Shown here one piece after another: positions 5,588 to 21,633 of a DNA stretch of 64,000 bases. Source of the DNA: Candidatus Angelobacter sp. Gp1-AA117 (GTDB lineage: Bacteria > Acidobacteriota > Terriglobia > Terriglobales > Acidobacteriaceae); assembly GCA_003223515.1 (NCBI GenBank), contig QHVI01000078.1:62001-126000 (forward strand), written 5' to 3'. Within the stretch, counting starts at the first letter, position 1. Each line of letters begins with the position of its first letter. Both the position numbers and the translations under genes were made by a program. Below the pieces are notes generated by a model. That model saw only the letters and a program-made list of their open reading frames with translations, was not told the DNA's origin and made no database searches.

Positions 5588-6376
5588 ATGAGAACTGCAC
5601 TTATGCTGATCGGTGCATTGCTGCCGGTGCTGGCGATGGCCCAAAGCTCCCAAAAAGCCCAGCCGCAGCGGGTCCCGGAGTACACCTACAAAGTCGTTCG
5701 TGAGTTTCCCCATGATCCTTCAGCATTTCTTCAGGGACTGGTTTACTACGATGGCTTCTTCTATGAAGGCACCGGTCGGCATGGTGAATCTTCGTTGCGC
5801 AAGGTGCGAATGGAAACCGGTGAGGTGGTGCAACGGGTAAACCTGCCGCGCGAATATTTCGGCGAGGGCATCACGATTTGCAACAACCAGATTGTGCAGA
5901 TTACCTGGCAGTCGCAAACCGGGTTCGTTTACAACCTGAAAGACTTTCACTTCCTGCGGCAATTCACCTATCCGGGAGAAGGATGGGGACTGACCACGCA
6001 TGGCAGCGAGATTTATATGAGCGACGGCACACCTGAAATTCGTGTGCTCGACGGCAACACGCTTCAGGAAAAACACCGGATCAAAGTTCACGATGGCGCC
6101 ACACCCATCACAGAATTGAATGAACTGGAATATGTGGAAGGGGAAATCTTCGCCAACATCTGGCATACAGACCGGATTGCACGCATCTCGCCTCAGACCG
6201 GCAAGGTACTGGGATGGATCGATCTCACGGGGCTGCTGAGCCCAATTTACAGACGTGACGAGGAAGCTGTTTTGAACGGAATTGCCTATGATCCGCAGAA
6301 GAAGAGATTGTTTGTCACCGGGAAGCTGTGGCCAAAGATTTTCGAGATCAAAATCGTGCCGAAGAAAACCTCCTGA
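5588..6376 (+). CDS. Glutaminyl-peptide cyclotransferase (bacterial/plant-type, propeller)
   Basis: A 262-residue protein of the glutamine cyclotransferase family, which cyclises N-terminal glutamine to pyroglutamate. The first 19 residues (MRTALMLIGALLPVLAMAQ) form a signal peptide, so it acts in the periplasm or outside. Family hallmarks are FLQGLVYYDGFFYEGTGRHG, the GEGITICNNQIVQITWQ blade, GEGWGLTTHG, MSDGT, ELEYVEGEIFANIWHTD and the final LNGIAYD..KRLFVTGKLWPKIFEI. Length fits the family. It stands alone between a terminator and a repeat-filled spacer. Confidence 0.9.
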   Translation: MRTALMLIGALLPVLAMAQSSQKAQPQRVPEYTYKVVREFPHDPSAFLQGLVYYDGFFYEGTGRHGESSLRKVRMETGEVVQRVNLPREYFGEGITICNNQIVQITWQSQTGFVYNLKDFHFLRQFTYPGEGWGLTTHGSEIYMSDGTPEIRVLDGNTLQEKHRIKVHDGATPITELNELEYVEGEIFANIWHTDRIARISPQTGKVLGWIDLTGLLSPIYRRDEEAVLNGIAYDPQKKRLFVTGKLWPKIFEIKIVPKKTS

Positions 6377-6385
6377 ATTTACTTG

Positions 6386-6409
6386 TTACCAAATTACTCA
6401 TTTACCCAT
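6386..6409. repeat. GGTAAATGGGTAA-family repeat (reverse orientation)
   Basis: TTACCAAATTACTCATTTAC and the following CCAT match the dispersed family also seen at about 11291, 26344, 28059, 34122, 44555, 47173 and 49262. It lies 10 bases after the stop of the cyclotransferase gene. Confidence 0.7.
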
Positions 6410-6430
6410 TCTCGCTACCTTGGCGCCGGT

Positions 6431-6620
6431 TGCGTCCTTTGCATTGCTAACGTTCGAATTCTTCTCTGCTTGCGACGAATTCTCCCGCGCAGCCAAGGGC
6501 GGGTGCGGTCCATAGGGAGCAACACACCGCCAAATTCAATACACATCACCTACTTTTGTTACCTCTGCGTCCTTTGCGTCCTCTGCGGTTAAAGGTTTTT
6601 GGTTGTGACTTCGCTACTTT
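6431..6620. repeat. 190-bp dispersed intergenic element, copy 1
   Basis: Aligns without gaps to 31921-32110 (constant offset 25490). By hand count 15 of 190 bases differ, about 92% identity. Contains CGTTCGAATTCTTCTCTGCT, GGGAGCAACACACCGCCAAA and, at its right end, the shorter CCTTTGCGTCCTCTGCGGTT motif that recurs elsewhere in the window. Fills most of the 322-base spacer 6377-6698. No start codon or ribosome site supports translation. Confidence 0.9.
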
Positions 6621-6698
6621 GCGGTTAATGTTTGACACCTCTCGAACTGCACCCTAATATCTTTCCAAGCTCTTACTCAAACGCACCCAGGAGAAATT

Positions 6699-7826
6699 GT
6701 GCCCGGCGAATCGGCTGATCCCAAAACCACTGCACCTCAGACTTCAGAAAGCAAAAGAGCCGAGCGGTTTTTGTGCTCGGGCTGCGCCTCGGCCATGCAG
6801 TTCGATCCTGATTCAGGCAAGCTGAAGTGCCCTTACTGCGGCCATGTGGAAGACCCGCCCAAAGAAGCCGGGGCCGCTCCACATCCCTACCTGGAAGCCC
6901 TGAATTCCGCCTCTGCACGCGTGCAGATTGCCGACAATGCGCAGGAGATTCACTGCCAGGGCTGCGGAAGCGTGGTAGCGTTTGTTCCTCCGCAAGTCGC
7001 AGGAGTGTGCTCGTTTTGCGGCACGGCTATCGTGGCTGAGCCGAAAGCCGCCGACCCGCTGATCGCGCCTGATGGCGTGCTCCCGGCCAAGATCTCAAAG
7101 AGAAGCGCGCAGGAGCAGGTGCAGAAGTGGCTGCAGACGCGCTGGTTTGCCCCCAATGCTCTGAAACGGCTCGCGCACCAGGAAGGAGTGAATGGAGTCT
7201 ATCTTCCTTTCTGGGCGTACGACTGCGATACAGACAGCACGTATACCGGCGAGCGCGGCGAGTACTACTACACGGCTGAAACCTACAAAGACAGTTCCGG
7301 GCAGGAACAGACCCGCCAGGTTCGCCACACAGCGTGGTATCCAGCCTCCGGACGGGTGGAGCAGGCTTTTCAAAACGTGCTGGTACCAGCAACCAAAGCT
7401 GTGGCAGAGGCGCGGCTGAACAAGCTTGCTCCGTGGGGGCTGAGTGCGGTGTGCGCTTACGAACCTGCATACCTGGCGGGATTCAAAGCCCAGCGCTACC
7501 AGGTTGAATTACCCCAGGGATTCGAGCGGGCCAAGGTCATGATGGCGCCTGTCATTGAAAGCGACATTCGCGGCGACATTGGCGGCGATGAGCAGCGCAT
7601 CTCATCTGTTCATAGCGATTACATGAACATCATGTTTCGTCATCTGCTGCTGCCGGTGTGGATCGGCGCATATCGGTTCAGCAACAAGGGCTATCAGGTG
7701 GTGGTCAATGCCAGCACCGGTGAGGTCCAGGGTGAACGTCCATACAGCGCAGTCAAGATCTTCTTCTTCTGCCTGTTTATCTTTTTTGTAGTGCTGTTCA
7801 TCCTGTATTTAAAGGGGCAGAGCTAA
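6699..7826 (+). CDS. Zinc-ribbon protein with C-terminal membrane helix
   Basis: A 375-residue protein beginning at GTG 6699, with AGGAGA 7 bases upstream. It has two zinc ribbons: CSGC..CPYC (about residues 26-48) and CQGC..CSFC (about 87-108). A globular region follows with W-rich segments (LPFWAYDCDTDSTYTGERG), then one transmembrane helix close to the C-terminus (about 350-370, IFFFCLFIFFVVLFILYL). Proteins of this shape are sometimes labelled as helicase-like because of the ribbons, but no helicase motif is present here. It sits divergently from the neighbouring SpeE/DUF350/DUF4178 block, whose proteins also carry Cys4 ribbons and membrane segments, so a shared membrane-associated role is possible (inference). 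Exact function unknown. Confidence 0.75.
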   Translation: MPGESADPKTTAPQTSESKRAERFLCSGCASAMQFDPDSGKLKCPYCGHVEDPPKEAGAAPHPYLEALNSASARVQIADNAQEIHCQGCGSVVAFVPPQVAGVCSFCGTAIVAEPKAADPLIAPDGVLPAKISKRSAQEQVQKWLQTRWFAPNALKRLAHQEGVNGVYLPFWAYDCDTDSTYTGERGEYYYTAETYKDSSGQEQTRQVRHTAWYPASGRVEQAFQNVLVPATKAVAEARLNKLAPWGLSAVCAYEPAYLAGFKAQRYQVELPQGFERAKVMMAPVIESDIRGDIGGDEQRISSVHSDYMNIMFRHLLLPVWIGAYRFSNKGYQVVVNASTGEVQGERPYSAVKIFFFCLFIFFVVLFILYLKGQS

Positions 7827-7942
7827 GCTGCTGGCAGACGGTTTATTGTCAGGCAGGAGATCACTGGCGGCTGGTCATTTGTTACTTGACCATGACTTCA
7901 AATACAGAGAGAATCAGGATATCTCTGGTGAGGTAATCCCAT

Positions 7943-8173
7943 ATGGCTACTGTAACGCGTGTAGAACAAGGTGATGCAATGATTCCGGCGGGTAAGACTC
8001 TCATTGATTATGAGGAAGCCATGGAGAAGCTGAGCCAGGATGAAGCATTTCGGGCCACCGTATATGCCATGAATACAGTGCTCATTCAAAAAGGCTTCTA
8101 TACGGCGGAAGAGTTCCGTTTTCAATTCCGTCAATCTGCACAAAAACAATTGAAAAAAAGAAAATCCCGCTAG
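7943..8173 (+). CDS. Small hypothetical protein
   Basis: A 76-residue, charged, helix-prone protein (about residues 18-70) with no membrane segment or Cys motif and a Lys/Arg-rich end (KKRKSR). The ATG at 7943 has a fair ribosome site (GAGG, 9 bases upstream), and a small hairpin spans the stop codon. I do not recognise a family. It lies between the zinc-ribbon gene and the convergent amine oxidase remnant. Confidence 0.55.
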   Translation: MATVTRVEQGDAMIPAGKTLIDYEEAMEKLSQDEAFRATVYAMNTVLIQKGFYTAEEFRFQFRQSAQKQLKKRKSR

Positions 8174-8189
8174 CGCGGGCGCGGTTTTT
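8166..8189 (+). terminator. Weak terminator-like hairpin
   Basis: CCCGC/GCGGG stem of 5 bp around the TAG stop of the small gene (8166-8179), followed after CGCGG by five T. The short stem makes it a tentative call. The rest of the spacer to 8418 shows nothing recognisable. Confidence 0.4.
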
Positions 8190-8418
8190 CATCTTTCTTC
8201 CACGTTTTGGGCATCCCACATTTTTCGGTGTCGCGACAAATGTGATGATCGCCTCTTTCGCAAAAAGGCATTCACACTCGCACCATCCCCAAAACTTATC
8301 CTGTTGCTCAGATGTCTTTTTTTCGACCATTTCCGTTAGACCGTTTGCTCCCTAAATTGCGCTGAATAATTTACGTGAAGAACGGTTAAAGCACAAATTA
8401 TATGCGTTGGTTCCGGGC

Positions 8419-9806
8419 TCAAGGTTTTCCCAGCACATGCAGTACGTGGTTCGCAGCGGTCACCCCTCTGAATTGCGCCTCTTCGAAAATCGAGATGCCG
8501 CTCAAGTCAGAGTTGGCGAAAAACAAGCGTCCTTGAGCAGCTTTCAGCTTTTTGCGTTCCGGCGAGAAGATGGCTCCCGGAACAGGGCGCACCATCGCGT
8601 GCCCCATGCGCATCACATCGATGCGTGAAACGCATTTGCGAATGTCTTTATGCACTCGTTCCAGATCGTGGAGGATGGCCTCTTTCCAGTAAGCCCAGTC
8701 TTTTTCCAGCAGCATCTGGCGGTTGGCCGCGGGTGGGCCTTCGGCCAGCGCCCAATAGAAAGTCCAGACAGTCTTGTCGGCAAAGGTGCGCAGGGACTGA
8801 TGCATGGCGTCCACATAACCCAATGTGGGAGAGTCCATGAAGACGTTGTCCCAGGCGGCTTCTGTGCGGGAATCAGGCATGGATTCAAGTGTAAGGTTGG
8901 CAGTAAGCCAGGGAGAGCCATCTGGCCGGTGCGCGCGAACTTGCCCAGGCGCGCCAGCAGTTGCCTGGTGATCCAGCCATTGCCTTCCGGCCAGGTGATC
9001 GGCCCTTTTTCTTCCGGGGCTCGCGACGAAAAGTAATGCACGCCCGCCCATGCTGATGTATCAGCGGCCAGCGCGCCATAATCGTCACGGCAGGCATAAT
9101 TCAGATACCAGAGCAGCAGTTTCGAGTTGAAGCTGTTCTGCTGCAACCATGCGGCAAAAGACATCTTGTCCAGGTCAGCATATTTGCTGGACCAGCCGCG
9201 TTCCATGGGAACAGTGAAACTGCCGCTGGCGCGGAATGCTCGCACCGCGTCATTGAAGCGTTGAAACTGTTCCCGGTCTGCCGGCGTGAGGCCGATTTCA
9301 GGCTCGATGCCATCCTGCCAGCGGCCATAAAGAAACAGGTGTTCCTGCGGAGCAAAGCAGAGATAACGCTCGTCCCATTTGCCATCTTTCAAAACACCGA
9401 GATCCGTAAACAGTTCTCGCACATACTCAGCCTGCTTGTCCGGGACAGGAACGTAGTGCGCGGCCCAGGGATAAGACGTGATCTGGTTTTCACCCCAGCG
9501 CGCATTTCCGCCGGCTTGGTTGTTCATTTCCAGCAGGACGAAATCGGAGAAACCGCGCTTTTGAAAGCGCCATGCCGCGCTCAGACCAGCAATGCCTCCA
9601 CCCACAATCACCGCAGGAATGCGAACCACCTCACGCGCCGCAGGGAACTGTGACCGGTCGCGAAGCAGATGGCCCATCTGAAACGAATCGTTCACGAATG
9701 AGCCGGAAATGGCGCGGTCCGCTTTGACCGAGAGACCCATGAGCGCAGCAGAGCCGAAGGCGCAGAAGTCGCGCCGTGTGATCTTCAATGGCTGATCTCC
9801 CGCCAC
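8419..9806 (-). pseudogene. FAD-dependent amine oxidase, frameshifted with probable internal deletion
   Basis: The N-terminal frame (9806 down to about 8915) has a twin-arginine-like leader (ITRRDFCAFGSAALMG), FAD-binding VIVGGGIAGLSAAW and the second flavin motif LLEMNNQAGGNARWG. The C-terminal family sequence (WDNVFMDSPTLGYVDAMHQS ... FFANSDLSGISIFEEAQFRG) continues in another frame, ending at TGA 8419. The join lies at about 8900-8935, where the first frame runs 'FARTGQ' and the second resumes at 'SPWLTANLTLES'. From memory of the family, a stretch of several dozen residues, including a second FAD-contacting segment, is normally found between these points. This suggests a deletion not divisible by three rather than a simple base error. 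The start overlaps the 3' end of the spermidine synthase gene by 22 bases, so the intact ancestor was the last gene of that operon. Confidence 0.75.
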
Positions 9807-11281
9807 TCCTGATCGTAGGTGCGCACCAGCACCTGGTCATTGAGATGGTTGGCCGGCATAGTGACCTGGGCCATGTCAGGAGGGAAGTCAAACATCGAGG
9901 GTAGCCCGGCTAGGGTAAGAAACCTCATGCCGCCGGGCAAGGACGTTGGAGGTGTGTAGTCATGTTGTGAGGCCAGCACGTATCCCCATTCGCCGAACGA
10001 AGGCACGTAGGTGTGATACGGATACACCTTGAATCCAGCCTGCTTCACCGTTTCCACAATGCACCAGAAAGATTTGCGCGCGAACATGGGCGAGGTGCTC
10101 TGCACCACGAACATGCCCTGGCGGCTGAGATGGTGGGCCAGCGTGGAATAAAACACAGTGGTGTAGAGCTTGCCGAGGGAGTAATTCGTGGGATCGGGAA
10201 AGTCCACGATGATGAAGTCAAAAAAATCCTGCGATGAATCGAGCCACAGGAAAGCATCGGCATTGATGATGTGAACCTTGGGAGACAGGAACGACCGCTG
10301 GTTCAGCCCGGTGAGAAATGGATTGGTGGAAAAAAGCCTGGTCATCTCCGGATCGAGATCCACCAGCGTAAGGCTTTCCACCTGCGGATATTTCAGCACC
10401 TCCCGCACGGCCAACCCGTCACCGCCGCCCAGCACCAGCACGTGCCGGGGTACCGGAACAGCAGCCAGGCCGGGATGCACCAGCGCCTCGTGATAACGAT
10501 ACTCGTCGCGAGAACTGAACTGCAGATGCGAGTTGAGGAATAGACGCAGATCGTCTTTCCATTTAGTAAGCACAATGTGCTGGTAATGCGTATCGCGGGA
10601 GAAGATGATCTCATCGGCGTAGATGTTGTCTTCGGCCAGCCCGGTAATGCGCTTGCCTTCCACCAGCCCCACACTGAGAAGAATGATCACGGCACAACAG
10701 ACGGCTTGCAGCCTGCGCGCGACGCTCAAGTGCTCTTTAAACAGGAAGGTGCTCCACAGAGCCACCGCGCCGTTCACAATTCCGAAGAAGAGCGCCGAGC
10801 GCACCAATCCGAGTTGCGGCACCAGCACCACGGGAAACAGGATGGAGGCGAACAACGCGCCGATGTAATCAAAAGTGAGGACGTGCGAGACCACCTCATG
10901 GAAATGGTAGCGGTGGCGGATAATGCGCATGAGCAGCGGAATTTCCAGTCCGACCAGAATGCCCAGCACGATCACAATCAGGTAAAGAAAAAGCTGAAAC
11001 CCCTGGGTAAAGGCAAACGCCAGAAATAGCAGGCTGGAAGAGAAGCCGCCCACTACAGCCACGATCAGTTCAATCCAGATAAAACGATAGGCAAGACCCC
11101 GCCGGATGAAGCGGGAAAGAAAACTGCCGATGCCCATCGCAAACAGGTAGCTGCCGATGACGGTGGAGAATTGGAAGATGCTGTCACCCACAAGATAGCT
11201 GGCGACAGCTCCGGCGATCAGTTCATAGATCAGCCCGCACGCGGCAATCAGCAGGATGGAGATGAAGAGAAGAATGGCCAT
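9785..11281 (-). CDS. speE: Membrane-anchored spermidine synthase-like aminopropyltransferase
   Basis: A 498-residue protein. The first ~205 residues form six or seven transmembrane helices; the rest is a spermidine-synthase fold with the SAM-type loop VLVLGGGDGLAVREV, the acidic strand end LVDLDPEM, then NADAFLWL and the catalytic-region VDFPDPTNYSLGKLYT. The family transfers an aminopropyl group from decarboxylated S-adenosylmethionine to an amine. Long forms with an N-terminal membrane domain are common in bacteria and their acceptor is usually unknown. speD lies in the same gene block and would supply the donor. Start: ATG 11281. The 203-base spacer to the DUF350 gene holds repeats, so it may have its own promoter. 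Confidence 0.85.
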   Translation of the reverse strand: MAILLFISILLIAACGLIYELIAGAVASYLVGDSIFQFSTVIGSYLFAMGIGSFLSRFIRRGLAYRFIWIELIVAVVGGFSSSLLFLAFAFTQGFQLFLYLIVIVLGILVGLEIPLLMRIIRHRYHFHEVVSHVLTFDYIGALFASILFPVVLVPQLGLVRSALFFGIVNGAVALWSTFLFKEHLSVARRLQAVCCAVIILLSVGLVEGKRITGLAEDNIYADEIIFSRDTHYQHIVLTKWKDDLRLFLNSHLQFSSRDEYRYHEALVHPGLAAVPVPRHVLVLGGGDGLAVREVLKYPQVESLTLVDLDPEMTRLFSTNPFLTGLNQRSFLSPKVHIINADAFLWLDSSQDFFDFIIVDFPDPTNYSLGKLYTTVFYSTLAHHLSRQGMFVVQSTSPMFARKSFWCIVETVKQAGFKVYPYHTYVPSFGEWGYVLASQHDYTPPTSLPGGMRFLTLAGLPSMFDFPPDMAQVTMPANHLNDQVLVRTYDQEWREISH

Positions 11282-11694: not shown

Positions 11695-11879
11695 TATTTT
11701 CCTCCGGTGTAGTGATGGTAAGAACTGTAAACAGAGCGATAAGAGCCGGGGTTGTCACGGACAGAGCGGGGCACGTTCTTGACTTCGTTGACAGTAGCCA
11801 GGTTCCAGCCCCGGAATTGTGCGGTGGCCATGAGCCCCAGGATAGCAATGCCGTAGAGCAGATACATTTTAGGAATCAT
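11694..11879 (-). CDS. 61-residue membrane protein inside the SpeD/DUF4178/DUF350 operon
   Basis: A short protein with one N-terminal transmembrane helix (MYLLYGIAILGLMATAQF, about residues 5-22) and a polar tail rich in Tyr, Ser and Arg ending HHYTGGK. It could be an inner-membrane anchor or a secreted short peptide. The start at 11879 overlaps the DUF4178 gene's stop by 11 bases and its own TAA overlaps the DUF350 ATG. Such tight packing on both sides argues strongly that it is real despite its size. I recognise no family. Confidence 0.7.
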   Translation of the reverse strand: MIPKMYLLYGIAILGLMATAQFRGWNLATVNEVKNVPRSVRDNPGSYRSVYSSYHHYTGGK

Positions 11880-13221
11880 TCTTGTCTCCAGAAGATTGAT
11901 GAACTAAGGATGAAAGCACACTGGCCACGCCAGGCTGCCCGCTGTCGCTCTCCTCCCATCGCCGGTGCTCAAAGCTTATGGAGCGCCATGAAAGCATGAT
12001 GGCGGGAACGAGCAGCAGACCGCAGGCGATTACGAACCATATAGGCGTCGGCACTCCGCGAGTGAGTTTCACGCTGTAATTGATAGCGCCGGTATTTTTG
12101 TCGCCTTCCGGCTCAACACGCAAGTAATATCTGCCTGATGGAACGGCAGGAAGCGTGACTGAATCGTTCCTGTCGCCTTCACTCCAGGCGCCGTCATCAT
12201 AACCCGAGTAATAGCTGACTTCACGGCTAAAGTCCCAGGCTTGCCCAGTGTCTACATTGATGAGCGCATAGTTCAGGTAAATCCAGTTATTGTTGAGATC
12301 GGCCTGGGTTTCTACCTTGACCGGAGAGTCCGGGCTCTTGAGATAAAACTCTTCGGTCACAAAGGAAGGCTCTCCGGTAGCTTGGGTATCAAAAGTATAG
12401 GAATGAGTAAAGACTGCCTGCTCGGGAGAGGTCACTGAGTTATAGACTTGCAACACGAGAGCAGCGAGAAACAGAAAAAACCAATAACGCCAGATTTTTT
12501 TCGGTGTGTCACCCAGCGGCGATGGCTGATTTTCATAGACACCCACGGCCGGCGGGGGCGCGCCGGGCAATGAGAATGCCTTCCAGATGTCTTTGCCGGA
12601 CATGTACTCGCCCAGCGACCATGTAACTTCCTTTTCACTTCCTTCTGAAGAGAGCACGCGCGGCGGACAGACATAATCGGTAACCTGGTAAGTCTCTCCG
12701 AATCGCACCTGCCAGGGAAACTCGCCAATCACATACGCAGTTTTTGCATTCGCAGTCTGGAAGCGTTTGTAAGTCTCATTCAGATACCTGACCGTATTGA
12801 GGCCGGTGCTCCTTGCTTCCGGAAGCGATCGCAGAGGTGAGACATAATTCCAGTGACCGTCATACTCAGTGAGATAGCGAAAGCCTTGGTACGGATTGAA
12901 TAGAAGATACTCGCCCCATCCGTAAGTCACGTCGTCCACTTCGATTTCGCGGCGCTGAAAGCCAATCACTTCCCACATCGTGCCCCGCAGCTTGCCCCGG
13001 CTTCCCAGCGGAATGAGCGGGTCCCATTTCATCTTCACCTTGAACTGCTGCAGTACCTGCACCTGGGGGTTTTGTGCGTCAAGGATGGAATGGCACCCTG
13101 AGCAAACTACATTGATGGCCTGCCCAAACGAACGCAGTGTAACCGTGGCCCCGCAATTCGGACAATTCAGCGAGCGAACGCTTACCGCCGGAATTTGTTT
13201 CTTAGGGCCGGATTCCAGCAT
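11869..13221 (-). CDS. DUF4178 zinc-ribbon membrane protein (long paralogue)
   Basis: A 450-residue protein. An N-terminal zinc ribbon (CPNCG at about 20-24 and CSGC at about 40-43) leads into a DUF4178 domain (about 60-220; LGSRGKLRGTMWEVIGFQRR and the WGEYLLFNPYQGFRYLTEYDGHW type of strand pattern). Two predicted membrane helices bracket an extracytoplasmic beta-rich segment: one about residues 252-265, the second about 393-412 (PIWFVIACGLLLVPAIMLSW). The ATG follows the TAG stop of the shorter DUF4178 gene without a gap. Function is unknown; the context ties it to SpeD, DUF350 and the SpeE homologue. Confidence 0.85.
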   Translation of the reverse strand: MLESGPKKQIPAVSVRSLNCPNCGATVTLRSFGQAINVVCSGCHSILDAQNPQVQVLQQFKVKMKWDPLIPLGSRGKLRGTMWEVIGFQRREIEVDDVTYGWGEYLLFNPYQGFRYLTEYDGHWNYVSPLRSLPEARSTGLNTVRYLNETYKRFQTANAKTAYVIGEFPWQVRFGETYQVTDYVCPPRVLSSEGSEKEVTWSLGEYMSGKDIWKAFSLPGAPPPAVGVYENQPSPLGDTPKKIWRYWFFLFLAALVLQVYNSVTSPEQAVFTHSYTFDTQATGEPSFVTEEFYLKSPDSPVKVETQADLNNNWIYLNYALINVDTGQAWDFSREVSYYSGYDDGAWSEGDRNDSVTLPAVPSGRYYLRVEPEGDKNTGAINYSVKLTRGVPTPIWFVIACGLLLVPAIMLSWRSISFEHRRWEESDSGQPGVASVLSSLVHQSSGDKNDS

Positions 13222-13857
13222 CTACCATCCTTCAAACTTACGGACATTGGTGAGCCGCAAATCGTCAAAATCGACTGCTTTGCCGATATACAGCGCCGGC
13301 TTTTCCGGTTCGCTGTAATCCAGTGTGGCGAAGTCGCCCTGTTCCGAACGAAGATCGATGAAAATTACATCTTCCTTGTCCCAGTATTCGAAAGGCAGCT
13401 CGCCTTCCACTCCAGCGTAGTGAGCATTGGTGCGCGAGGTCACCGCGAAGCGGATCTTTTTCCATTCAAATTGCGTTCCCACGGGTGCCTTGTCAGGGGG
13501 CGGAAGATTGCCGATGTCCTGCTGGAAGGAAATGACGTATTCATCCTGGGCATCGGAGAGCCAGCCGTCTTTGCCGTCATTGAAAACGATGTGCCACTCA
13601 TTCCAGTTGCCCTGTTCGTATTCGTAAATGATCCTGCCCACCACAACGAAGGCGCGGTCGCCATACTTGCCTTCGGTAGTGATCTGGATGGGAGAGGCGT
13701 CCGGCGGCAGATCGGCAACTTGGCCTACCTTCTTCAGGTCGACATCCGTGCGCACCAGGATTGATTTGCAGTATTCGCAGACGGTTTGCACGCTGCTTGA
13801 CCAGCGAAATGCAACAGGAGCGCCGCAGTTTGGACAATTCGAGGTGCGTTCAGTCAC
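13222..13857 (-). CDS. DUF4178 zinc-ribbon protein (short paralogue)
   Basis: About 211 residues from the GTG at 13857, chosen because GGAGG lies 11 bases upstream and because it overlaps the speD stop by only 8 bases; a longer frame is open to 13959 but would lie deep inside speD. The N-terminus carries a Cys4 ribbon (CPNCG...CEYC) followed by a DUF4178 domain (YGDRAFVVVGRIIYEYEQGNWNEW...DGWLSDAQDEYVISFQ). No membrane helix is visible, so it may be the soluble partner of the following long paralogue. Two DUF4178 proteins in tandem suggest a hetero-complex (inference). Confidence 0.8.
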   Translation of the reverse strand: MTERTSNCPNCGAPVAFRWSSSVQTVCEYCKSILVRTDVDLKKVGQVADLPPDASPIQITTEGKYGDRAFVVVGRIIYEYEQGNWNEWHIVFNDGKDGWLSDAQDEYVISFQQDIGNLPPPDKAPVGTQFEWKKIRFAVTSRTNAHYAGVEGELPFEYWDKEDVIFIDLRSEQGDFATLDYSEPEKPALYIGKAVDFDDLRLTNVRKFEGW

Positions 13858-14254
13858 CGGTGCGCAATCCTCCGGTAAAAGAGTGCGTGGCAGCAGCCAT
13901 GCCTGAGGATGCAGAATACGGACGTTCAAGGCGGCGCACGCTGACTGTATCCGCCGCAAACATCTCTTTCAGGCAGGCAGCAAAATCCCAGTCAGCACGC
14001 GGACGGCAGCAAAACAGGTTCAGGCAGAGAGAACCATGTTCAGGAAATGTGTGACAGGTAAGGTGCGATTCGGAAAGAAGGCACAGCCCGGTAATTCCAC
14101 CTGAATCAGGAAATTGTTGCCACTGATCCTGACCACAGGGGTGGAGACCCAACTCCTGCACCATGCGCGCGAAAAGGGCCTGCAATGTCTCCAGGCTGCT
14201 CAGCGATTCGGGAGCGCAACCGTAAGCTTCAACAACCCATTCAATGCCAGTCAT
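13850..14254 (-). CDS. speD: S-adenosylmethionine decarboxylase proenzyme
   Basis: A 134-residue class 1b (Thermotoga/Bacillus-type) AdoMet decarboxylase, which makes the aminopropyl donor for polyamine synthesis. The self-cleavage site is intact: Glu62-Ser63 in SESHL, where Ser63 would become the pyruvoyl group. His68 (in CHTFPE) and Cys83 (in FCCRP) stand at the same numbers as the processing His and catalytic Cys of the Thermotoga enzyme. Two positions differ from the usual 'SIHTWPE' string (Thr66-Cys67, Phe70). Extra Cys residues are unusual. It is the first gene of the tightly overlapping block, 124 bases downstream of the SPFH gene. Confidence 0.9.
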   Translation of the reverse strand: MTGIEWVVEAYGCAPESLSSLETLQALFARMVQELGLHPCGQDQWQQFPDSGGITGLCLLSESHLTCHTFPEHGSLCLNLFCCRPRADWDFAACLKEMFAADTVSVRRLERPYSASSGMAAATHSFTGGLRTGD

Positions 14255-14350
14255 TGGCAGGTTCGTTTTCTTTTGTCAGCAAGAATTTTGGTTGTCACTA
14301 TTCTTCTGCGCAGCCGGGATTCTCGTTGCACCTCGGAACCCAAGCTTTTG

Positions 14351-14383
14351 CTAAGTCCTAACTACTAATTACTAAGTACTAAG
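14351..14383. repeat. CTAAGT/ACTAATTACTAAGTACTAAG repeat
   Basis: A short AT-rich quasi-repeat (CTAAGTCC-TAACTACTAATT-ACTAAGTACTAAG) in the speD/SPFH spacer. The TAG stop of the SPFH gene (14379-14381) falls within it, so the repeat has run up to the end of the coding sequence. Confidence 0.5.
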
Positions 14384-15416
14384 ATTGCGGCTTCCCGCAT
14401 TCAGGACAAAACTTGCCGGCGCGCGGCATTGGCTTACCGCACTCCACGCAGAATTTGCTCTCAGCACCGGCAGCAGCACCACCGCCGCCACCACCAGGAT
14501 TTAGCCCACCTCCGGCAGCGGGAGTGACTCCACCGCTTCCGGGGTCAGCACCAGCGGCGCGATTCATGCTGCCCATCATCGCCTGCGCCATGCCCAACCC
14601 TGCACCCAATCCGGCGCCGATGCCGGCAGCACCGCCGCCCTCATTGGCAGCAGCGATGGGCACAGATTGTGCCACCTGAAATTGCGTGTAGCGGTTCATG
14701 TCGCCGATCATATTCATGCCAATGCGCTGATCGAGAATCTTCTGCAACTCGTCCGGCATGGAGAGGTTTTCGACCACGAACGTATCCAGCGCGATCCCCA
14801 GGTCCTTGAAGCCGGGCTGAAGCAGTTCGGCAACTTTCTGTCCCAGTTGCATCTGGTTGGCCGCCATATCAAGGAAGGGAACGTTGCTCTGGGCAAACGT
14901 GTTGGTCAGAGTGCCGATAATAGTGTTGCGCAACTGCCCTTCAAGATCGGCCACCATGTAATGGTCGCGGGTGCCGCTGATCTTCTCGTAGAAAGTCTTG
15001 GGATCGGCAACGTGGTACGAGTAGATGCCGAAAGCCCGGATGCGGACAGCGCCGAATTCCTTGTCACGAATGGTGATGGGCTGCGGCGTCCCCCAATGCT
15101 GATCCACCTGAATGCGCGTGGAGAAGAAATAGACGTCAGATTTGAACGGGGATTGAAAGGCCTTATCCCAGTTCATGATGTACGTGAGGATGGGCAGCGT
15201 GGCCGTAGTCAGCCGATAACGTCCCGGCCCGAAAACGTCAGCAATTCTGCCTTCGTTTACGAAAACCCCCATTTGCGAATCGCGAACGGTAAGCTGGCCG
15301 CCGTTCTGGATTTCACGATCCTGCATGGGGTAGCGGTAGGCAAGAATGCCGTCCTCGGGTTCTACCCACTCAATGACATCAATAAACTGCTTGGAAATGA
15401 ATGACCGTAAACTCAC
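14379..15416 (-). CDS. SPFH/band-7 domain protein with C-terminal zinc ribbon
   Basis: About 345 residues from the GTG at 15416, which has GGGAGG five bases upstream; the frame is open further but with no ribosome site. The N-terminal two thirds is an SPFH/band-7 domain of the YdjI type (FIDVIEWVEPEDGILAYRYP at the start, then GVFVNEGRIADVFGPGRYRL). A coiled region follows, then a low-complexity Gly/Ala linker, and finally a double-CxxC ribbon (CVECGKPMPRAGKFCPECG). No transmembrane helix is obvious. SPFH proteins build membrane-associated scaffolds; with speD, DUF4178 and DUF350 downstream on the same strand, a membrane stress or remodelling role is plausible (inference). Confidence 0.85.
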   Translation of the reverse strand: MSLRSFISKQFIDVIEWVEPEDGILAYRYPMQDREIQNGGQLTVRDSQMGVFVNEGRIADVFGPGRYRLTTATLPILTYIMNWDKAFQSPFKSDVYFFSTRIQVDQHWGTPQPITIRDKEFGAVRIRAFGIYSYHVADPKTFYEKISGTRDHYMVADLEGQLRNTIIGTLTNTFAQSNVPFLDMAANQMQLGQKVAELLQPGFKDLGIALDTFVVENLSMPDELQKILDQRIGMNMIGDMNRYTQFQVAQSVPIAAANEGGGAAGIGAGLGAGLGMAQAMMGSMNRAAGADPGSGGVTPAAGGGLNPGGGGGGAAAGAESKFCVECGKPMPRAGKFCPECGKPQS

Positions 15417-15535
15417 AACTCCCTCCCTCGGCTGGCCCTTTAGGATATTCTGGCGCTTATCGGAATCGTATGGGGAAGCGCGCCGGAATGTCAATCAATA
15501 CGCGAAAAATCTGCATTGTAGATCGCAATTGAGTA

Positions 15536-16260: not shown

Positions 16261-16977
16261 GTGTCTGGAAGCCTGGAACTGGCAGATAAATTCGTTCAGC
16301 AGACGGAAAATGGGGTTAGAATTCCGTCCACTATTCTTTCTCCCATGGGACTAAATGAGCTTTCAATCCGGGAACTGCTGGAATACTGCCTGCGTACGAA
16401 TCTTGACGCGGGCTGGAAAGCGTTCTTCTGCAGGACGCGGAAGACCATTGAAGGCACCTTGGCTAGAAGACTGCGCTCGTGGTGCACTTCCTATCACGAT
16501 CGGATTGAGGATTTGCGGCAAGAGACCTACGCCAAGTTACTCAATAACGAAAAGAGGCTTCTGCTGAACCTGAAGTGCGAGAGCGACGGTCAGCTATGTA
16601 ATTACATAGCCATGACCGCAGGCAGCGTAGCAGAAGATTACAGGCGCAAAGAGCAAAAGATGAGGCAGAACACCGACAGCATCGATGATGCAGCGTACCC
16701 GGAGTTGCCGGCAGAAGAACTGCTCCATCGCCATGCTGAATTCCAAGAAGCATGGGATTCAGTCGAACGATGCCTGGACAAGATGGAATGCGGGCCGCGG
16801 GACCGTGCTATTTTTTATTTTTTCTATAAACAGGGCTATTCAGCCAGGGAAGTTGGGGAGCTTCCTTCTATCCAATTACCGATCAGGACTGTAGAGAACA
16901 TATTGCTGCGCCTGGTTCGTCGAGTTAGGTCAGAATTGGACCGGGGTAAGTCTCGTGGTAAAGGATCAGGCGCATAA
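16261..16977 (+). CDS. ECF-like RNA polymerase sigma factor
   Basis: About 239 residues with a sigma-70 region 2-like core (ARRLRSWCTSYHDRIEDLRQETYAKLL, about residues 70-100) and a C-terminal region 4 helix-turn-helix (YSAREVGELPSIQLPIRTVENILLRLVRRVRSEL). It would direct RNA polymerase to a small regulon. The start is uncertain: GTG 16261 and TTG 16255 both follow a long purine stretch, and the frame stays open to TTG 16225. It is directly followed by a zinc-finger anti-sigma candidate, the usual arrangement for ECF pairs. Divergence from well-known ECF groups is considerable. Confidence 0.75.
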   Translation: MSGSLELADKFVQQTENGVRIPSTILSPMGLNELSIRELLEYCLRTNLDAGWKAFFCRTRKTIEGTLARRLRSWCTSYHDRIEDLRQETYAKLLNNEKRLLLNLKCESDGQLCNYIAMTAGSVAEDYRRKEQKMRQNTDSIDDAAYPELPAEELLHRHAEFQEAWDSVERCLDKMECGPRDRAIFYFFYKQGYSAREVGELPSIQLPIRTVENILLRLVRRVRSELDRGKSRGKGSGA

Positions 16978-17030
16978 GATTTGTAGGGTTTTGGCTATGT
17001 TCCTCGTTATCAGTTTCAAGGAGCCTGAAA

Positions 17031-18257
17031 GTGAAGCAGCTAAGCAGTCATTTAACAAGTCGGGAAATTGAGGAATATATACGAGATGGATACGGCGAGA
17101 ACGCCAGTCCACAGGCTGTGGCCATTGAGTCCCATATTGAAGATTGCAATTCATGCCGGGAGCGTCTTCTTGAGTCGTCACGGCAGGACCTGCGCCTGAC
17201 TCTGGAGGTCCCGCAGGAAGCCGGAATAGAACCCAGGCGCACCATGGAATGTCCGGATGAAGAAACCCTGATCAGATTTTCAGCTGGCGTGATAGCAGAT
17301 GAAGAACTGCAACTTACCGCCCACGTGGCGCGTTGCGAATATTGTGCCTCAAAGGTGAAGAATTATCTGGAAGATCCGGAGGAGGAACCCAGCCGCCCTT
17401 TTAAATGGGGTTCCGTCGATTTAAGAGCAGCGATGCGCAGAATCCGGGGATTGCTGCAAACTAAAGTCCTTGTGCCTGCTTGCGCAGCGGCCCTGGCGAT
17501 TGGCGGCTTCGTGGAGGGCCCTGCCATTGTTGCCGGGTACAAACTAAACCGCGCAAATAAAGCGGTCATGGCGGCATTTATCCATCAACGGCCTAACGAG
17601 CTACGGGAAACCTGGTCTCCTTACGCGCCATACAACCCACCACTCGGGGATGATCAGGATGTCTTGAACAATCCTAAACTGGTCGCGGCAATGAACTCTG
17701 TGGCCCAGGAAGGCAATTCCTCAGATCCACGATGGATCCGAATACGCGGACAGGTGGAACTCCTGCGCAAGCGCAACCAAGCTGTTGATGTTCTGACAAG
17801 GGCCAGGGCGGCGGGCCTGGACGATCCGGCCACAGAAATTGATCTTGCAGCAGCATATTTTCAACGAGAGATCCAAATGGCAGCTTCGAAAACGGTTGAG
17901 CAGAAGGCGAACCCGCCATCCAGCGGCGGCACTGAAGATAAGAACACTTACCCGCAGTTGCAAGACACGCTGAAACTGCTGCACAACGTGCTGCAAGACC
18001 CGCGGACGACACAGGAGCAGCGTGCCGTTGCTCTCTTTGATCTTGCCATCACCTATGAAAAATCACAGCGCCGGGATGAAGCAGCCAGAACATGGGACGA
18101 CTACCTGAAGATTGACAGTACAAGCCCATGGGCAGAAGAAGCCCGCCAACATCAAAACAGCGACAAACAGAATACCCCGCCTCCGAAGCAGCAAGGTTAC
18201 CGAGAACCTGTTTTTTTTTGTCCCATTCCTCAGATACTGACGTCCGGCAAAGCTTAA
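17031..18257 (+). CDS. Zinc-finger anti-sigma/TPR protein, probably the N-terminal part of a split TPR-CHAT protein
   Basis: GTG start at 17031 with AAGGAG seven bases upstream. Two HxxxCxxC zinc-finger motifs of the anti-sigma type are visible: HIEDCNSC (about 34-41) and HVARCEYC (about 98-105). A membrane helix (about 144-168, VLVPACAAALAIGGF) is followed by TPR-like repeats, the last ending 'YLKIDSTSPWAEEARQH'. The final 15 residues after a run of nine T (18211-18219) look unlike the family and end at TAA 18255. In related proteins as I remember them, the TPR region continues straight into a CHAT protease; here that continuation is in the -1 frame. Likely role: membrane-bound inhibitor of the neighbouring sigma factor, joined to a CHAT module. 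Confidence 0.75.
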   Translation: MKQLSSHLTSREIEEYIRDGYGENASPQAVAIESHIEDCNSCRERLLESSRQDLRLTLEVPQEAGIEPRRTMECPDEETLIRFSAGVIADEELQLTAHVARCEYCASKVKNYLEDPEEEPSRPFKWGSVDLRAAMRRIRGLLQTKVLVPACAAALAIGGFVEGPAIVAGYKLNRANKAVMAAFIHQRPNELRETWSPYAPYNPPLGDDQDVLNNPKLVAAMNSVAQEGNSSDPRWIRIRGQVELLRKRNQAVDVLTRARAAGLDDPATEIDLAAAYFQREIQMAASKTVEQKANPPSSGGTEDKNTYPQLQDTLKLLHNVLQDPRTTQEQRAVALFDLAITYEKSQRRDEAARTWDDYLKIDSTSPWAEEARQHQNSDKQNTPPPKQQGYREPVFFCPIPQILTSGKA

Positions 18258-20557
18258 CCGAGTATCAGGACATTGCGCTCCGCACCTGGATTCCTGAAGG
18301 CGCAGGAAACCCTGACAGTCCCGGACTCAAAGCTGCTCATCTATTAGCTGACCTGCTGAATGAACATGGAGATAACTGGCTGAATCATTTTCTCAAAGCC
18401 ATTCAACCCGGAGATGCTGCTGGGATACAAGCATTGAGTACGGCCATCACCAAAAATAAAAGAGGTCTGTACAACGCCGGACAGATCGAAGCTGAAAGAG
18501 CGGAAAAGATTTTTGGCAGCAGGAACGTGCCCGGGGCGCTCAGGGCGCGGTTTGAGTTTGTCTATGCCAGCCAGCGTTTGCTGGATCAGGAATTGTGCTT
18601 GAAGCGGGCCCAGGGACTGGAGCGCGAGCTTCGCGGCACCTCATACCGGTGGTTACAGATACAGATAGCGCTGGAGGAGGCTGTTTGCCTCAATTTCCAT
18701 GAGGAATTCGAAGCGGCCGATCAGCACGTGGAAGCTGCGCGTGAGGAGGCCAAGCGCGCCGATTATCCCTTATTGAAGCTGCGGGCGATTTCATTGGGTG
18801 CAGGCATGAAAGTGCCGCGTGACCCGGATGTAAGCGCAAGCTGGCAAGAAGCGCTGGAAGGGCTGGCACAGTATTGGAACGGTCCAAGCGCGCCAGACCG
18901 GCTTTATGAGTTCCTTACTGTCATGAAACGGTGCCTTATAAAAGAAGATAATCCAGATGCAGCACGGGCCTTTGAGGAAAGCATGGTCATGATACTCGAA
19001 AAGACTCATGTGGCTGACGAAAACCTGGTGCTCAAAGCCATAGCCCACGCTGACATGTCAGAAATTTATCTCAAATTAAATGACCCAAAAAGCGCTGAGA
19101 AGGAAGCGGACATCGCGCTTGGCATTTTGCAAAAGATCCCCCCTGGAGAAATTGCTGCCCGCAAGTATGAAGTGCCTATTGAGATAGAGAAAGCCGAACT
19201 TCAACTCGAGCGCAACGACGCAAAAAAGGCGGCAGAAATACTTGACGGCGCAAAGGAACTTCTGGATCTCATTCACGATGAATTGATCCGCTTAAGGTTC
19301 ATAAGAGTGCAAGGAGATGTCTGGCTCAGAATGGGGCAGCTTGACGATGCTGAAAGGACTTATAAAACAGGGCTGGAGCTTGCTGAACAGGCCCTGGCGA
19401 ATCTGCACCGGCGTGAAGACCGGCAGAAGTGGGCGGATGAGACTGGTGAGTTATATAGAGGCCTGGTCAATGTTTTCATGGAACAAAAAAAAGAATTGCA
19501 GGCTTTGCAACTCTGGCGGTGGTATCAGGCGCGCACCCTGGCCGCCAGCGGTGACGTTCAAACAGGTGGCATTTCCTGGGATGAGATTCAAGGGCAAGTC
19601 TCCACTGTTCCGCTGCCTGCCGAGGAGTCCGGCGTTCGCATTGTGTATGCAGCCATGAAGGACAACTTATACGCATGGACGATCAAGGGGACAGAAGTAA
19701 AAGCATTCTCAGTTGCAAAAAAGCAAAAGACTTTAAAGGAGATGGTCACACGATATGCAGAGAAATGCAGCACTCCCGGATATTCGAACCCAGCTCTCTT
19801 TGACGACGAAAGCAAAAAGCTGTTTGCAGTGTTGCTGCAGCCTTTCATAGCTGTACTTCAACAAAATAATACCGTGGCAGTCGAGTTGGATCCGGCCATC
19901 AATGGAGTATTCCTGGAAACATTGAAAAGTCCTGAAGGCTGGTACTTCGGCCAAAAATATCCGGTCATTTACTCTCCCGGCTGGGTACAGGAAAGCGTTC
20001 TTCGTCCATTCGGCAAAGCAGACCAGGGAGTATTCCTGAATGCCCAGCCCAGAGACATACCGGAGATGCAGGGTCTCGAAAAAACCGTCACCGGATTGTA
20101 TCCGGCCATAGAGTCCCTGGATCCATCTGACCTGGAAGCATGGCACCGCAGGCTTGCAACAAGTCAAATGCTCATTTTCTTCGGTCATGGCAAGGCACAG
20201 GGCCTGATCTATGCAGGCAACCAGGTTTTGAGGGCGCAGGATTTCCCGCCAGACTCACTCGCTCATTTGCAGATTGCGGCGCTGATAGCATGCTCGACTG
20301 GTTCCGCAGGACAGGGCCTAATCCACACTGATGATCTGGTACATGCTTTCCTTGCCGGAGGCACCCCGAATGTGGTCGCCAGCAACTGGGACGTGGATTC
20401 CAGGGCCACGGGACAGTTGATTGCTGTTTTTCTGCATTCTCTGAAAGCTGGCAAAACCCCGGCCAATGCCATGTACGAAGCCCGCAAGAGCATCTTCATT
20501 GCTTATGCCGAACCCTATTACTGGGCGGCCTTCAGCGTTGTTGGCAAAGCCAACTGA
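18128..20557 (+). CDS. TPR-CHAT domain protease (frame opens inside the preceding gene)
   Basis: The open frame gives up to 809 residues, but the first ~27 are an off-frame reading of the anti-sigma/TPR end; family-like sequence starts after the T run (about 18218, SLTEYQDIALRTWIPEG). TPR-type helical repeats fill residues ~30-480. The C-terminus is a CHAT domain (caspase HetF-associated with TPRs, a caspase-like peptidase) with the catalytic His687 in FFGHGKA and Cys722 in ALIACSTGSA, then NWDVDSRAT and PYYWAAFSVVG. If read with one extra T, the upstream gene and this one form a single 1175-residue zinc-finger/TM/TPR/CHAT protein. There is no ribosome site in front of ATG 18128, which supports that view. 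Confidence 0.75.
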   Translation: MGRRSPPTSKQRQTEYPASEAARLPRTCFFLSHSSDTDVRQSLTEYQDIALRTWIPEGAGNPDSPGLKAAHLLADLLNEHGDNWLNHFLKAIQPGDAAGIQALSTAITKNKRGLYNAGQIEAERAEKIFGSRNVPGALRARFEFVYASQRLLDQELCLKRAQGLERELRGTSYRWLQIQIALEEAVCLNFHEEFEAADQHVEAAREEAKRADYPLLKLRAISLGAGMKVPRDPDVSASWQEALEGLAQYWNGPSAPDRLYEFLTVMKRCLIKEDNPDAARAFEESMVMILEKTHVADENLVLKAIAHADMSEIYLKLNDPKSAEKEADIALGILQKIPPGEIAARKYEVPIEIEKAELQLERNDAKKAAEILDGAKELLDLIHDELIRLRFIRVQGDVWLRMGQLDDAERTYKTGLELAEQALANLHRREDRQKWADETGELYRGLVNVFMEQKKELQALQLWRWYQARTLAASGDVQTGGISWDEIQGQVSTVPLPAEESGVRIVYAAMKDNLYAWTIKGTEVKAFSVAKKQKTLKEMVTRYAEKCSTPGYSNPALFDDESKKLFAVLLQPFIAVLQQNNTVAVELDPAINGVFLETLKSPEGWYFGQKYPVIYSPGWVQESVLRPFGKADQGVFLNAQPRDIPEMQGLEKTVTGLYPAIESLDPSDLEAWHRRLATSQMLIFFGHGKAQGLIYAGNQVLRAQDFPPDSLAHLQIAALIACSTGSAGQGLIHTDDLVHAFLAGGTPNVVASNWDVDSRATGQLIAVFLHSLKAGKTPANAMYEARKSIFIAYAEPYYWAAFSVVGKAN
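18211..18219 (+). other. Run of nine T at the frame junction of the anti-sigma/TPR and CHAT genes
   Basis: Frame 0 reads GTT TTT TTT TGT across the run; a -1 slip (or one added T in the transcript) gives GTT TTT TTT TTG TCC and continues into the CHAT frame. Runs of this length are known sites for polymerase slippage, and also for sequencing error or disabling mutation. Confidence 0.8.
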
Positions 20558-20628
20558 CAATTTCAATCTTTTCCCGCATCTTGCAGGAAATGCGCTTATA
20601 TCTCGTTTTTATCTTTCAGGAGAAGGAA

Positions 20629-21633
20629 ATGAACAGGCGCAGATTACTGAAACAGTTGCTGGCTCTGCCGGTTGCAACGGCTGTTGGGGGATGCGGTTTT
20701 TTTCATCCTAAACAATCCCCAATCAAGAGTTTGAAAATTCTGCTGCAGGGGCCATTCGCTGTGCTCATACAGCAAAACCAGAAATACCGGATCAAGGCGT
20801 ATGTTCCGCATGACGATAAGTACATACATGAGTTCCGGTACAGGGACCCATCACGGAACCCTCTCGGCGAAGATAAAGGGCAGAACAGCTATGAGTTCAG
20901 TCTCGGCAATGACGGGTTGGAAATTTCTGAAGAGAGCCCTTACATTGACCATGGGTTCGATGATTTCAACCCGACTATTTCCAGGTACTATCCGCCTGAA
21001 AAGGCCTTTGTGTCTTTGGATCTTCCTGCACCCGATCTCATCAGCTATATTCCGCCTGCTGAGCCGGTGCGCTTTAATGATGGAACATATGGAAAGCTGC
21101 CATTGAATCACGTCCTTGAATACAGGGTAAAAGATGTATCGAAGGTGAAGATGGAATACAGGGTAAAAGATGGATCGAAGGTGAAGATGCATTCGAGGGA
21201 TCTGCCTGGTTTTTCTGGTCCGACGACTTGTGATGATCTGTATAAAAATTACAAGGCATATTGGAAGACAGAGAAGGAAGGTCTCGATGAAGGGCGGCAT
21301 CTAGACGATATGTTGGCGCGTTGCTCACAATCGAAAGTCGCAACCTACTTCTTTGGAGTGGGATTGCCTTACACGTCTGACCCGGAGCATGCACTCACAT
21401 TTTTCAATACGAAATTGCTCCCAATCCTTTACGGACAGGATGTGATTAAGAATCCGCCTCCCAATAGCTTAGTGGAGATCAAGCCTGCACCCTGTGGCCA
21501 GCAGAGAAGCACAGGAGCAATGCCAATGCTCATGCCGGCTGTTTACAGGCCTGCTGTAGCAACGCCGCGGTTATTTATGGCTTCTTCAACACAAGATTGC
21601 AACGCCCCCGCAGTAACGGCCACCGTCCAATGA
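20629..21633 (+). CDS. Lipoprotein of unknown function downstream of the CHAT gene
   Basis: About 334 residues from ATG 20629, preceded by AGGAGAAGG; the frame is open further upstream but without a ribosome site. The N-terminus MNRRRLLKQLLALPVATAVGGC has a paired-arginine leader and a lipobox ending at Cys, so it is predicted to be a lipid-anchored protein, possibly Tat-exported. A direct duplication of 12 residues (EYRVKDVSKVKM / EYRVKDGSKVKM) lies near the middle, caused by a 36-bp tandem repeat. I recognise no family. Located 71 bases after the CHAT gene on the same strand, it may belong to the same signalling unit. Confidence 0.7.
   Translation: MNRRRLLKQLLALPVATAVGGCGFFHPKQSPIKSLKILLQGPFAVLIQQNQKYRIKAYVPHDDKYIHEFRYRDPSRNPLGEDKGQNSYEFSLGNDGLEISEESPYIDHGFDDFNPTISRYYPPEKAFVSLDLPAPDLISYIPPAEPVRFNDGTYGKLPLNHVLEYRVKDVSKVKMEYRVKDGSKVKMHSRDLPGFSGPTTCDDLYKNYKAYWKTEKEGLDEGRHLDDMLARCSQSKVATYFFGVGLPYTSDPEHALTFFNTKLLPILYGQDVIKNPPPNSLVEIKPAPCGQQRSTGAMPMLMPAVYRPAVATPRLFMASSTQDCNAPAVTATVQ
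21118..21189 (+). repeat. 36-bp tandem duplication inside the lipoprotein gene
   Basis: Two 36-base units (21118-21153 and 21154-21189) differ at a single base (T/G) and keep the frame, duplicating 12 residues. The near identity points to a recent event. Confidence 0.9.

What the first reader, a model, noticed from the sequence alone, without database searches (positions are those of the whole stretch)
16261..21633. Sigma factor, anti-sigma/TPR, CHAT protease and lipoprotein island
A divergent ECF-like sigma factor is followed by a protein with two anti-sigma zinc fingers, a membrane helix and TPRs, then a caspase-like CHAT peptidase with intact His and Cys, then a Tat/lipobox lipoprotein. 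A direct physical link between sigma-factor control and a CHAT protease suggests a stress-triggered proteolytic switch, possibly a cell-death or conflict system.
Basis: partly seen in the sequence, partly recalled or inferred. Interest (0 to 1): 0.7.

Follow-up and report, generated by a model that had tools for sequence, protein, structure and literature searches.

The report
Slippery anti-sigma/CHAT-protease gene beside sigma factor
What looked like separate anti-sigma and protease genes in a soil acidobacterium is most likely one gene, cut in two by a run of nine Ts on which the copying or reading machinery is expected to slip, so that the cell makes both a short membrane regulator and a long one carrying a caspase-like protease; related genes across the phylum repeatedly keep such runs at the same place.

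Summary
In 72 of 80 related acidobacterial loci a divergent ECF-like sigma gene lies directly upstream of a single ~1200-codon gene: anti-sigma HxxxCxxC fingers, one membrane helix, TPRs, TPR superhelix, CHAT protease. The closest solved protein is DdvA, the transmembrane anti-sigma factor of Myxococcus. In the window this gene is split by a -1 frame change exactly at a T9 run (18211-18219); no usable start codon exists in the protease frame for the next ~70 conserved codons. Seven such split genes were found; all have the same -1 offset and all have a run of 9-10 A or T at the break. In another genus the gene is unbroken but keeps an in-frame C-T10-G close by in 17 of 19 members; this is the strongest synonymous-conservation outlier of the gene, and its motif occurs nowhere else in 398 genomes. 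Best reading: programmed slippage (RNA polymerase or ribosome) yields a short anti-sigma form and a long protease-bearing form, as for TssM and dnaX. The architecture is a known kind; the conserved slip site in it appears new. Cell death is unsupported.

The parts
16345..16977 (+). Divergent ECF-like sigma factor (210 aa from ATG 16345; the open frame reaches back to 16216)
   Evidence: Sigma70_r2 in 15/22 and Sigma70_r4_2 in 8/22 homologues; sigma profile hit directly upstream of the anti-sigma/CHAT gene in 72 of 80 loci
17031..18257 (+). Frame-0 product: anti-sigma fingers, membrane helix and first TPRs (408 aa), ending ...REPVFFCPIPQILTSGKA; GTG start with AAGGAG at 17018-17023
   Evidence: homologous to the N part of one fused gene in relatives; profile A4 hits DdvA at 4e-7
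17133..17156 (+). First HxxxCxxC finger (HIEDCNSC)
   Evidence: conserved
17322..17345 (+). Second HxxxCxxC finger (HVARCEYC)
   Evidence: H98, C102 and C105 invariant in 13 relatives
17466..17540 (+). Predicted membrane helix, with the finger side more positively charged (fingers inside, TPR-CHAT outside)
   Evidence: hydropathy, charge count over 72 homologues, helix 150-185 in the model
18211..18219 (+). T9 slip site (GTT TTT TTT TGT in frame 0; one added T or a -1 shift gives GTT TTT TTT TTG TCC = V F F L S)
   Evidence: A/T runs of 9 or more at the frame break in all seven split genes; rare in the genome (18 distinct runs in 6.48 Mb)
18220..20557 (+). Protease frame (-1): TPR superhelix and CHAT domain, reached only through the slip; with one inserted T the fused product is 1175 aa
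   Evidence: no start codon until 18434; 777-residue AlphaFold model, pLDDT 87.9, with helices from residue 5 onwards
20186..20188 (+). Catalytic His codon (FFGHG)
   Evidence: invariant in 17 relatives; coordinates
20291..20293 (+). Catalytic Cys codon (IACSTG)
   Evidence: invariant in 17 relatives; coordinates
20629..21633 (+). Exported lipoprotein with Tat-like signal (MNRRRLLKQL...VGGC, 334 aa); possible partner or substrate
   Evidence: homologue downstream in every complete own-genus locus; no Pfam family

Best explanation
The locus is a sigma factor followed by one DdvA-type transmembrane anti-sigma gene (zinc fingers in the cytoplasm, one membrane helix, extracytoplasmic TPR and CHAT protease), followed by an exported lipoprotein. 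The gene carries a programmed slip site, T9. Normal reading stops shortly after it and gives a short, protease-free, membrane-bound anti-sigma form. Slippage that adds one T to the mRNA (or a -1 ribosomal shift on U UUU UUU) gives the full TPR-CHAT form. The two forms, possibly as mixed dimers, would set how much sigma is simply held and how much is held by a sensor able to respond through its protease. Shown by sequence: fusion in relatives, the frame break at the run, the same offset in all split genes, conservation of such runs, selection on the shifted frame. Inferred: that slippage happens, its rate, the side of the membrane, protease activity, and sigma release.
For: Fused gene in most relatives. 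Seven split genes (window, L041, L048, L051, L156, L160, L238), all offset by -1 and all with an A/T run of 9-10 in the overlap; the tree needs at least 6 changes of the split state. No start codon downstream of the run for ~70 conserved codons. In L041 and L048, both broken, the shifted frame shows dN 0.09 against dS 0.82 over 70 codons. Runs of 9 or more: 24 in family genes against 1.9 expected from synonymous shuffling; 1 against 2.3 in control ORFs. In genus g29 the in-frame T10 is the strongest synonymous-conservation outlier: excess 0.38, next 0.12, mean 0.005. The motif GCNC-T10-GGCG occurs in 16 of 398 genomes, every time in this gene. Precedents: tssM makes full length from a broken frame in one species and a truncated form from an unbroken frame in another (PMC4256274); Thermus dnaX, Shigella spa13 and mxiE (PMC5009743).
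Against: No RNA, protein or slippage measurement exists. Most genomes are drafts or MAGs, where run lengths can be off by one. Many relatives carry no run of 9 or more in this gene, so slippage is not required by the family as a whole. No stimulatory RNA structure stands out (z near 0, mean z -0.4). The enrichment counts are not phylogenetically independent.
Confidence: 0.72

Rival explanations
1. Phase variation: the run is a contingency tract whose length changes at replication and switches the protease on or off between cells or lineages.
For: Orthologous tracts differ in phase: L238 T9 out of frame against its sister L239 T10 in frame; L041 and L048 out of frame against L042 in frame.
Against: In genus g29 all 17 tracts are exactly T10 and in frame, without length variation, over a deep clade. 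All seven broken copies are offset the same way, and the shifted frame is under purifying selection in both L041 and L048. T9-T10 is within the range known for transcriptional slippage.
Confidence: 0.14
2. Assembly error, or a recent inactivating frameshift without function (pseudogene).
For: Homopolymers are the usual place for indel errors; many genomes are drafts; the in-frame state is commonest.
Against: Same break with the same offset in seven assemblies of separate lineages; catalytic His and Cys kept; strong selection on the shifted frame; synonymous conservation of the in-frame T10 in g29 cannot come from assembly error.
Confidence: 0.12
3. Two separate proteins as first read: an anti-sigma/TPR protein and an independently started cytosolic CHAT protease.
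For: A continuous 813-codon frame exists.
Against: No ATG/GTG/TTG until 18434, inside the conserved TPR part; the model shows a folded helix from residue 11 after the run; relatives are fused.
Confidence: 0.04
4. Same programmed site, but acting by -1 ribosomal frameshifting instead of RNA polymerase slippage.
For: All split genes need exactly -1; the frame-0 codons form X XXY YYZ heptamers (U UUU UUU; A AAA AAG as in dnaX for L051 and L156).
Against: No downstream stimulatory structure. Runs of nine or more are not needed for ribosomal shifting but are for polymerase slippage (PMC1088944).
Confidence: 0.3

Closest known systems
DdvS/DdvA of Myxococcus xanthus (ECF sigma and transmembrane anti-sigma factor; PDB 8rot, 8rw5)
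   Same: DdvA is the best full-length structural match (VIA Z 22.3, 644 residues at 4.2 A, model 1-774 against DdvA 309-991), the best PDB sequence match to the CHAT part (2e-9, His and Cys kept) and a match to the finger/TM/TPR part (4e-7, DdvA 63-282). Same order of parts, with a sigma partner.
   Different: About 15% identity; no slip site is known to me in ddvA; lipoprotein neighbour here; regulon unknown here, whereas DdvS controls a CBASS/CRISPR island (PMC12288465). The DdvA papers themselves are not held.
Craspase / Csx29 (TPR-CHAT) with Csx30 and CASP-sigma, type III-E CRISPR
   Same: TPR-CHAT protease tied to an ECF-like sigma through its inhibitor (PMC10028731); high structural similarity (Z up to 26.5, rmsd 7 or more).
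   Different: There the protease is a separate RNA-guided protein that cleaves the inhibitor; here it is part of the membrane anti-sigma factor itself. CRISPR genes near the locus were not searched for.
tssM of Citrobacter rodentium and Yersinia pseudotuberculosis (transcriptional slippage on poly-A)
   Same: One gene, short and long form; broken frame in one species, unbroken in another, both making two products (PMC4256274).
   Different: Different protein; slippage was measured there and is only inferred here.
dnaX (tau/gamma) of Thermus and E. coli
   Same: In-frame slippery run with nearby stops in the other frames gives a truncated second product (PMC5009743), as expected for the g29 genes.
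   Different: DNA polymerase subunit; slippage shown there.

Membership tests
DdvA-type transmembrane anti-sigma factor | N-terminal zinc-finger anti-sigma domain, one membrane helix, TPR and CHAT in one chain | tested here: met
   HxxxCxxC motifs, TM, TPR and CHAT in one frame in most relatives; A4 and A5 profiles hit DdvA. In the window itself the chain is whole only after the -1 shift.
DdvA-type transmembrane anti-sigma factor | Overall fold of the extracytoplasmic part | tested here: met
   644 aligned residues, rmsd 4.2, Z 22.3 to 8rot_A
DdvA-type transmembrane anti-sigma factor | Binds and inhibits the neighbouring ECF sigma | not testable with these tools
   Only gene adjacency is shown
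zf-HC2 anti-sigma finger (Pfam PF13490) | Score over the curated cut-off | tested here: inconclusive
   Window 14.7 bits against a cut-off of 22.2; 1 of 13 relatives under 0.01; the N-part fold search found no match below 0.001
ECF sigma factor | Sigma-70 regions 2 and 4, no region 3 | tested here: met
   Regions found in relatives; the window copy is itself below detection
ECF sigma factor | Recognisable autoregulated ECF promoter | tested here: inconclusive
   Only an extended -10-like TGTTGTAAAATCC upstream of the sigma gene in g29
CHAT (caspase-like) protease | CHAT domain with catalytic His and Cys | tested here: met
   PF12770 78 bits over cut-off 24; His and Cys invariant
CHAT (caspase-like) protease | Proteolytic activity | not testable with these tools
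   No assay
Programmed slippage / frameshift gene | Slippery sequence exactly at the frame break, with the same direction in relatives | tested here: met
   Seven of seven split genes
Programmed slippage / frameshift gene | Nucleotide-level conservation beyond protein need | tested here: met
   g29 T10 synonymous outlier, motif specific to this gene
Programmed slippage / frameshift gene | Two products made in measured proportion | not testable with these tools
   Needs RNA and protein data
Csx29/Craspase module | Association with Cas7-11 (gRAMP) and Csx30 | not tested
   No search for these genes was made

The most novel reading that the evidence does not exclude
A bacterial sigma pathway in which programmed slippage inside the anti-sigma gene decides whether the membrane inhibitor carries its caspase-like protease, with slip sites gained repeatedly at the same joint across Acidobacteriota; the slippage rate itself could be the regulated step that sets the sensitivity of the switch.
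Probability: 0.4. Interest if true: 0.85.

Novelty: new variant of a known kind. Interest (0 to 1): 0.64.

Why it matters
If true, an anti-sigma factor would be made in two forms, with and without its protease, from one gene by slippage. Programmed frameshifting in an anti-sigma or CHAT gene did not turn up in the paper searches made here. It warns that annotation pipelines will list such genes as a pair or as a pseudogene, and it offers a direct handle, silent changes of T9 or T10, to test what the CHAT part of DdvA-type anti-sigma factors does, which is an open question for this family.

Tried and rejected
PADLOC gave only one marginal hit (HEC-08, 0.006), not used. RNA structure as a stimulator: no signal at five sites; the hairpin just upstream of T10 in many g29 genes looks terminator-like but averages z -0.4 over 17 sites, so it is left as a lead. 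The ECF promoter search upstream of sigma gave only an extended -10-like block. The zinc-finger fold could not be confirmed by structure search. The first genome-contig scan with alignment A1 failed for lack of conserved stretches and was replaced by A2. DdvA papers are not held; what is said of DdvA rests on PDB titles, alignments and a review. The first-look idea that the break is a simple assembly error was dropped.

Full report
WHAT IS THERE. The region 16345-21633 holds, on the + strand, a sigma-like gene, an anti-sigma/TPR frame, a TPR-CHAT frame and an exported lipoprotein. The genome is an acidobacterium: close relatives in named collections are Acidobacteriaceae MAGs. It carries nine CHAT matches. 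The CHAT domain is certain (E 1e-21) and its His and Cys are invariant in 17 aligned relatives. The window's sigma and fingers are divergent and fall below Pfam thresholds; their relatives identify them (Sigma70_r2 in 15/22, Sigma70_r4_2 in 8/22; conserved HxxxCxxC motifs).

ONE GENE, NOT TWO. In relatives the anti-sigma and CHAT parts are one open frame of about 1135-1263 codons, with a sigma gene directly upstream in 72 of 80 loci; six of the eight without it are open frames cut at or near a contig end. In the window the two parts lie in different frames that overlap over 18116-18257, and this overlap contains a run of nine Ts at 18211-18219. Downstream of the run the protease frame has no ATG, GTG or TTG until 18434, yet those codons encode conserved sequence and form the first helices of a confidently predicted TPR superhelix (pLDDT 87.9). 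They can be translated only by entry from the upstream frame. One extra T, or a -1 shift, gives ...YREPVFFLSHSSD..., a 1175-residue protein; the near relative L040 reads ...YRSPDFFLQHFSD... without a break.

RECURRENCE. Six more split genes were found: L041 and L048 (T9, same genus), L051 (A10, same genus but a distant paralogue), L156 (A10, titled Acidimicrobiia), L160 (A9, uncultured Acidobacteria) and L238 (T9, another family of the phylum). In all seven the protease frame is -1 relative to the anti-sigma frame, and in all seven an A/T run of 9-10 lies in the overlap. A tree of 101 sequences needs at least six changes for the split state and nine for having a run near the joint (FastTree, several long branches, so these counts are approximate). 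Sisters can differ in phase at the same tract: L238 T9 (out) and L239 T10; L041 and L048 (out) and L042.

SELECTION. L041 and L048, both broken, show dN 0.09 and dS 0.82 over the first 70 codons after the run in the shifted frame, so that frame is translated in both. In genus g29 the gene is unbroken but carries GCG CTT TTT TTT TTG GCG GAN about 35 codons after the position of the window's run, in 17 of the 19 members of its clade. Of all six-codon windows of the gene this site has by far the highest excess of identical synonymous codons (0.38; next independent window 0.12; mean 0.005), in genes of 61% GC. The motif GCNC-T10-GGCG is found in 16 of 398 family genomes, each time in this gene and never elsewhere. 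Over all loci, runs of nine or more number 24 in family genes against 1.9 expected by synonymous shuffling, and 1 against 2.3 in other ORFs of the same loci; 24 against 2 by DNA length. These numbers are not independent samples, because g29 alone gives 17 of them. Fourteen other CHAT ORFs have none.

MECHANISM. T9 and T10 are in the length range where bacterial RNA polymerase slips (PMC1088944), and no RNA structure stands out at the sites; this favours polymerase slippage. All split genes need exactly -1 and their runs form heptamers usable for -1 ribosomal frameshifting, so the ribosome is not excluded. Either way two products follow. In the window the default product is the short anti-sigma form and slippage makes the long one; in g29 the default is the long form and slippage makes a short one, since the frame reached by losing one T stops three codons later in 16 of 17 genes. 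The same pair of arrangements is documented for tssM in two species, where both forms and their ratio matter in the one that was tested (PMC4256274), and for dnaX, spa13 and mxiE (PMC5009743).

WHAT IT RESEMBLES. Foldseek and VIA-align place the predicted TPR-CHAT part with DdvA, separases and Csx29. DdvA is the match that covers the whole model with the lowest deviation among the full-length matches (644 residues, 4.2 A). DdvA is also the best PDB sequence match of the CHAT part (2e-9) and a match of the finger/TM/TPR part (4e-7). The slip site falls in the linker between DdvA residues about 282 and 309. The charge pattern around the membrane helix and two invariant cysteines on the facing helices of one TPR hairpin suggest that TPR and CHAT are outside the inner membrane, next to the exported lipoprotein. 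This topology is inferred. The likely pathway is: sigma held by the fingers; a signal at the TPR-CHAT part outside (perhaps the lipoprotein); a conformational or proteolytic change; sigma released. None of these steps was tested. DdvS controls an antiphage island (PMC12288465); whether this sigma does so is unknown.

DIVERSIFICATION. Between L041 and L048 the anti-sigma part is 91% identical, but identity falls from 88% to about 50% within some 80 codons after the slip site. The sensor/protease half evolves or recombines much faster than the sigma-binding half, as expected of a part facing a changing signal.

VERDICT. The finding worth keeping is a conserved, repeatedly gained slippery run inside DdvA-type anti-sigma/CHAT genes. 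Confidence that the two frames are one gene is about 0.9; that slippage is used to make two products, about 0.7.

Noticed in passing
L041 and L048 (locus coordinates 5852-9411 and 6941-10503, minus strand): The anti-sigma half is 91% identical while the TPR-CHAT half drops to about 50% soon after the slip site: mosaic or fast-evolving sensor/protease.
   Followed up: partly
L088:7265-8713 and L094:3717-5042: In Silvibacterium and Granulicella relatives a clostripain (Peptidase_C11, E 3e-24 and 2e-28) gene, a second caspase-like peptidase, lies next to the anti-sigma/CHAT gene in opposite orientation.
   Followed up: partly
L040 (A9 at codon 688) and L045 (A10 at codon 457): Two unbroken own-genus genes carry long A runs elsewhere in the TPR part, where slippage would truncate the protein.
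   Followed up: no
g29 genes just upstream of T10, e.g. L064:5581-5595: A GCGCC-N5-GGCGC hairpin directly before the T10 run in many g29 genes looks like an intrinsic terminator inside the coding region; mean z only -0.4.
   Followed up: partly
upstream of the sigma genes in g29 loci: Conserved TGTTGTAAAATCC block, like an extended -10 element, between hemB and the sigma gene.
   Followed up: no
window 11869-15494, minus strand: Operon of zinc-ribbon, DUF4178 and SPFH (Band_7) proteins next to the sigma locus.
   Followed up: no
L041, L042 and L048, N part: The first finger is missing or out of frame in these three related genes, with only the second HxxxCxxC kept; no slippery run was seen there.
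   Followed up: partly
own genome, contigs C29 and C80 (L044, L058): Two further TPR-CHAT paralogues with an anti-sigma-like N part in the same genome, without a run at the joint; a sigma gene was found upstream of both.
   Followed up: partly
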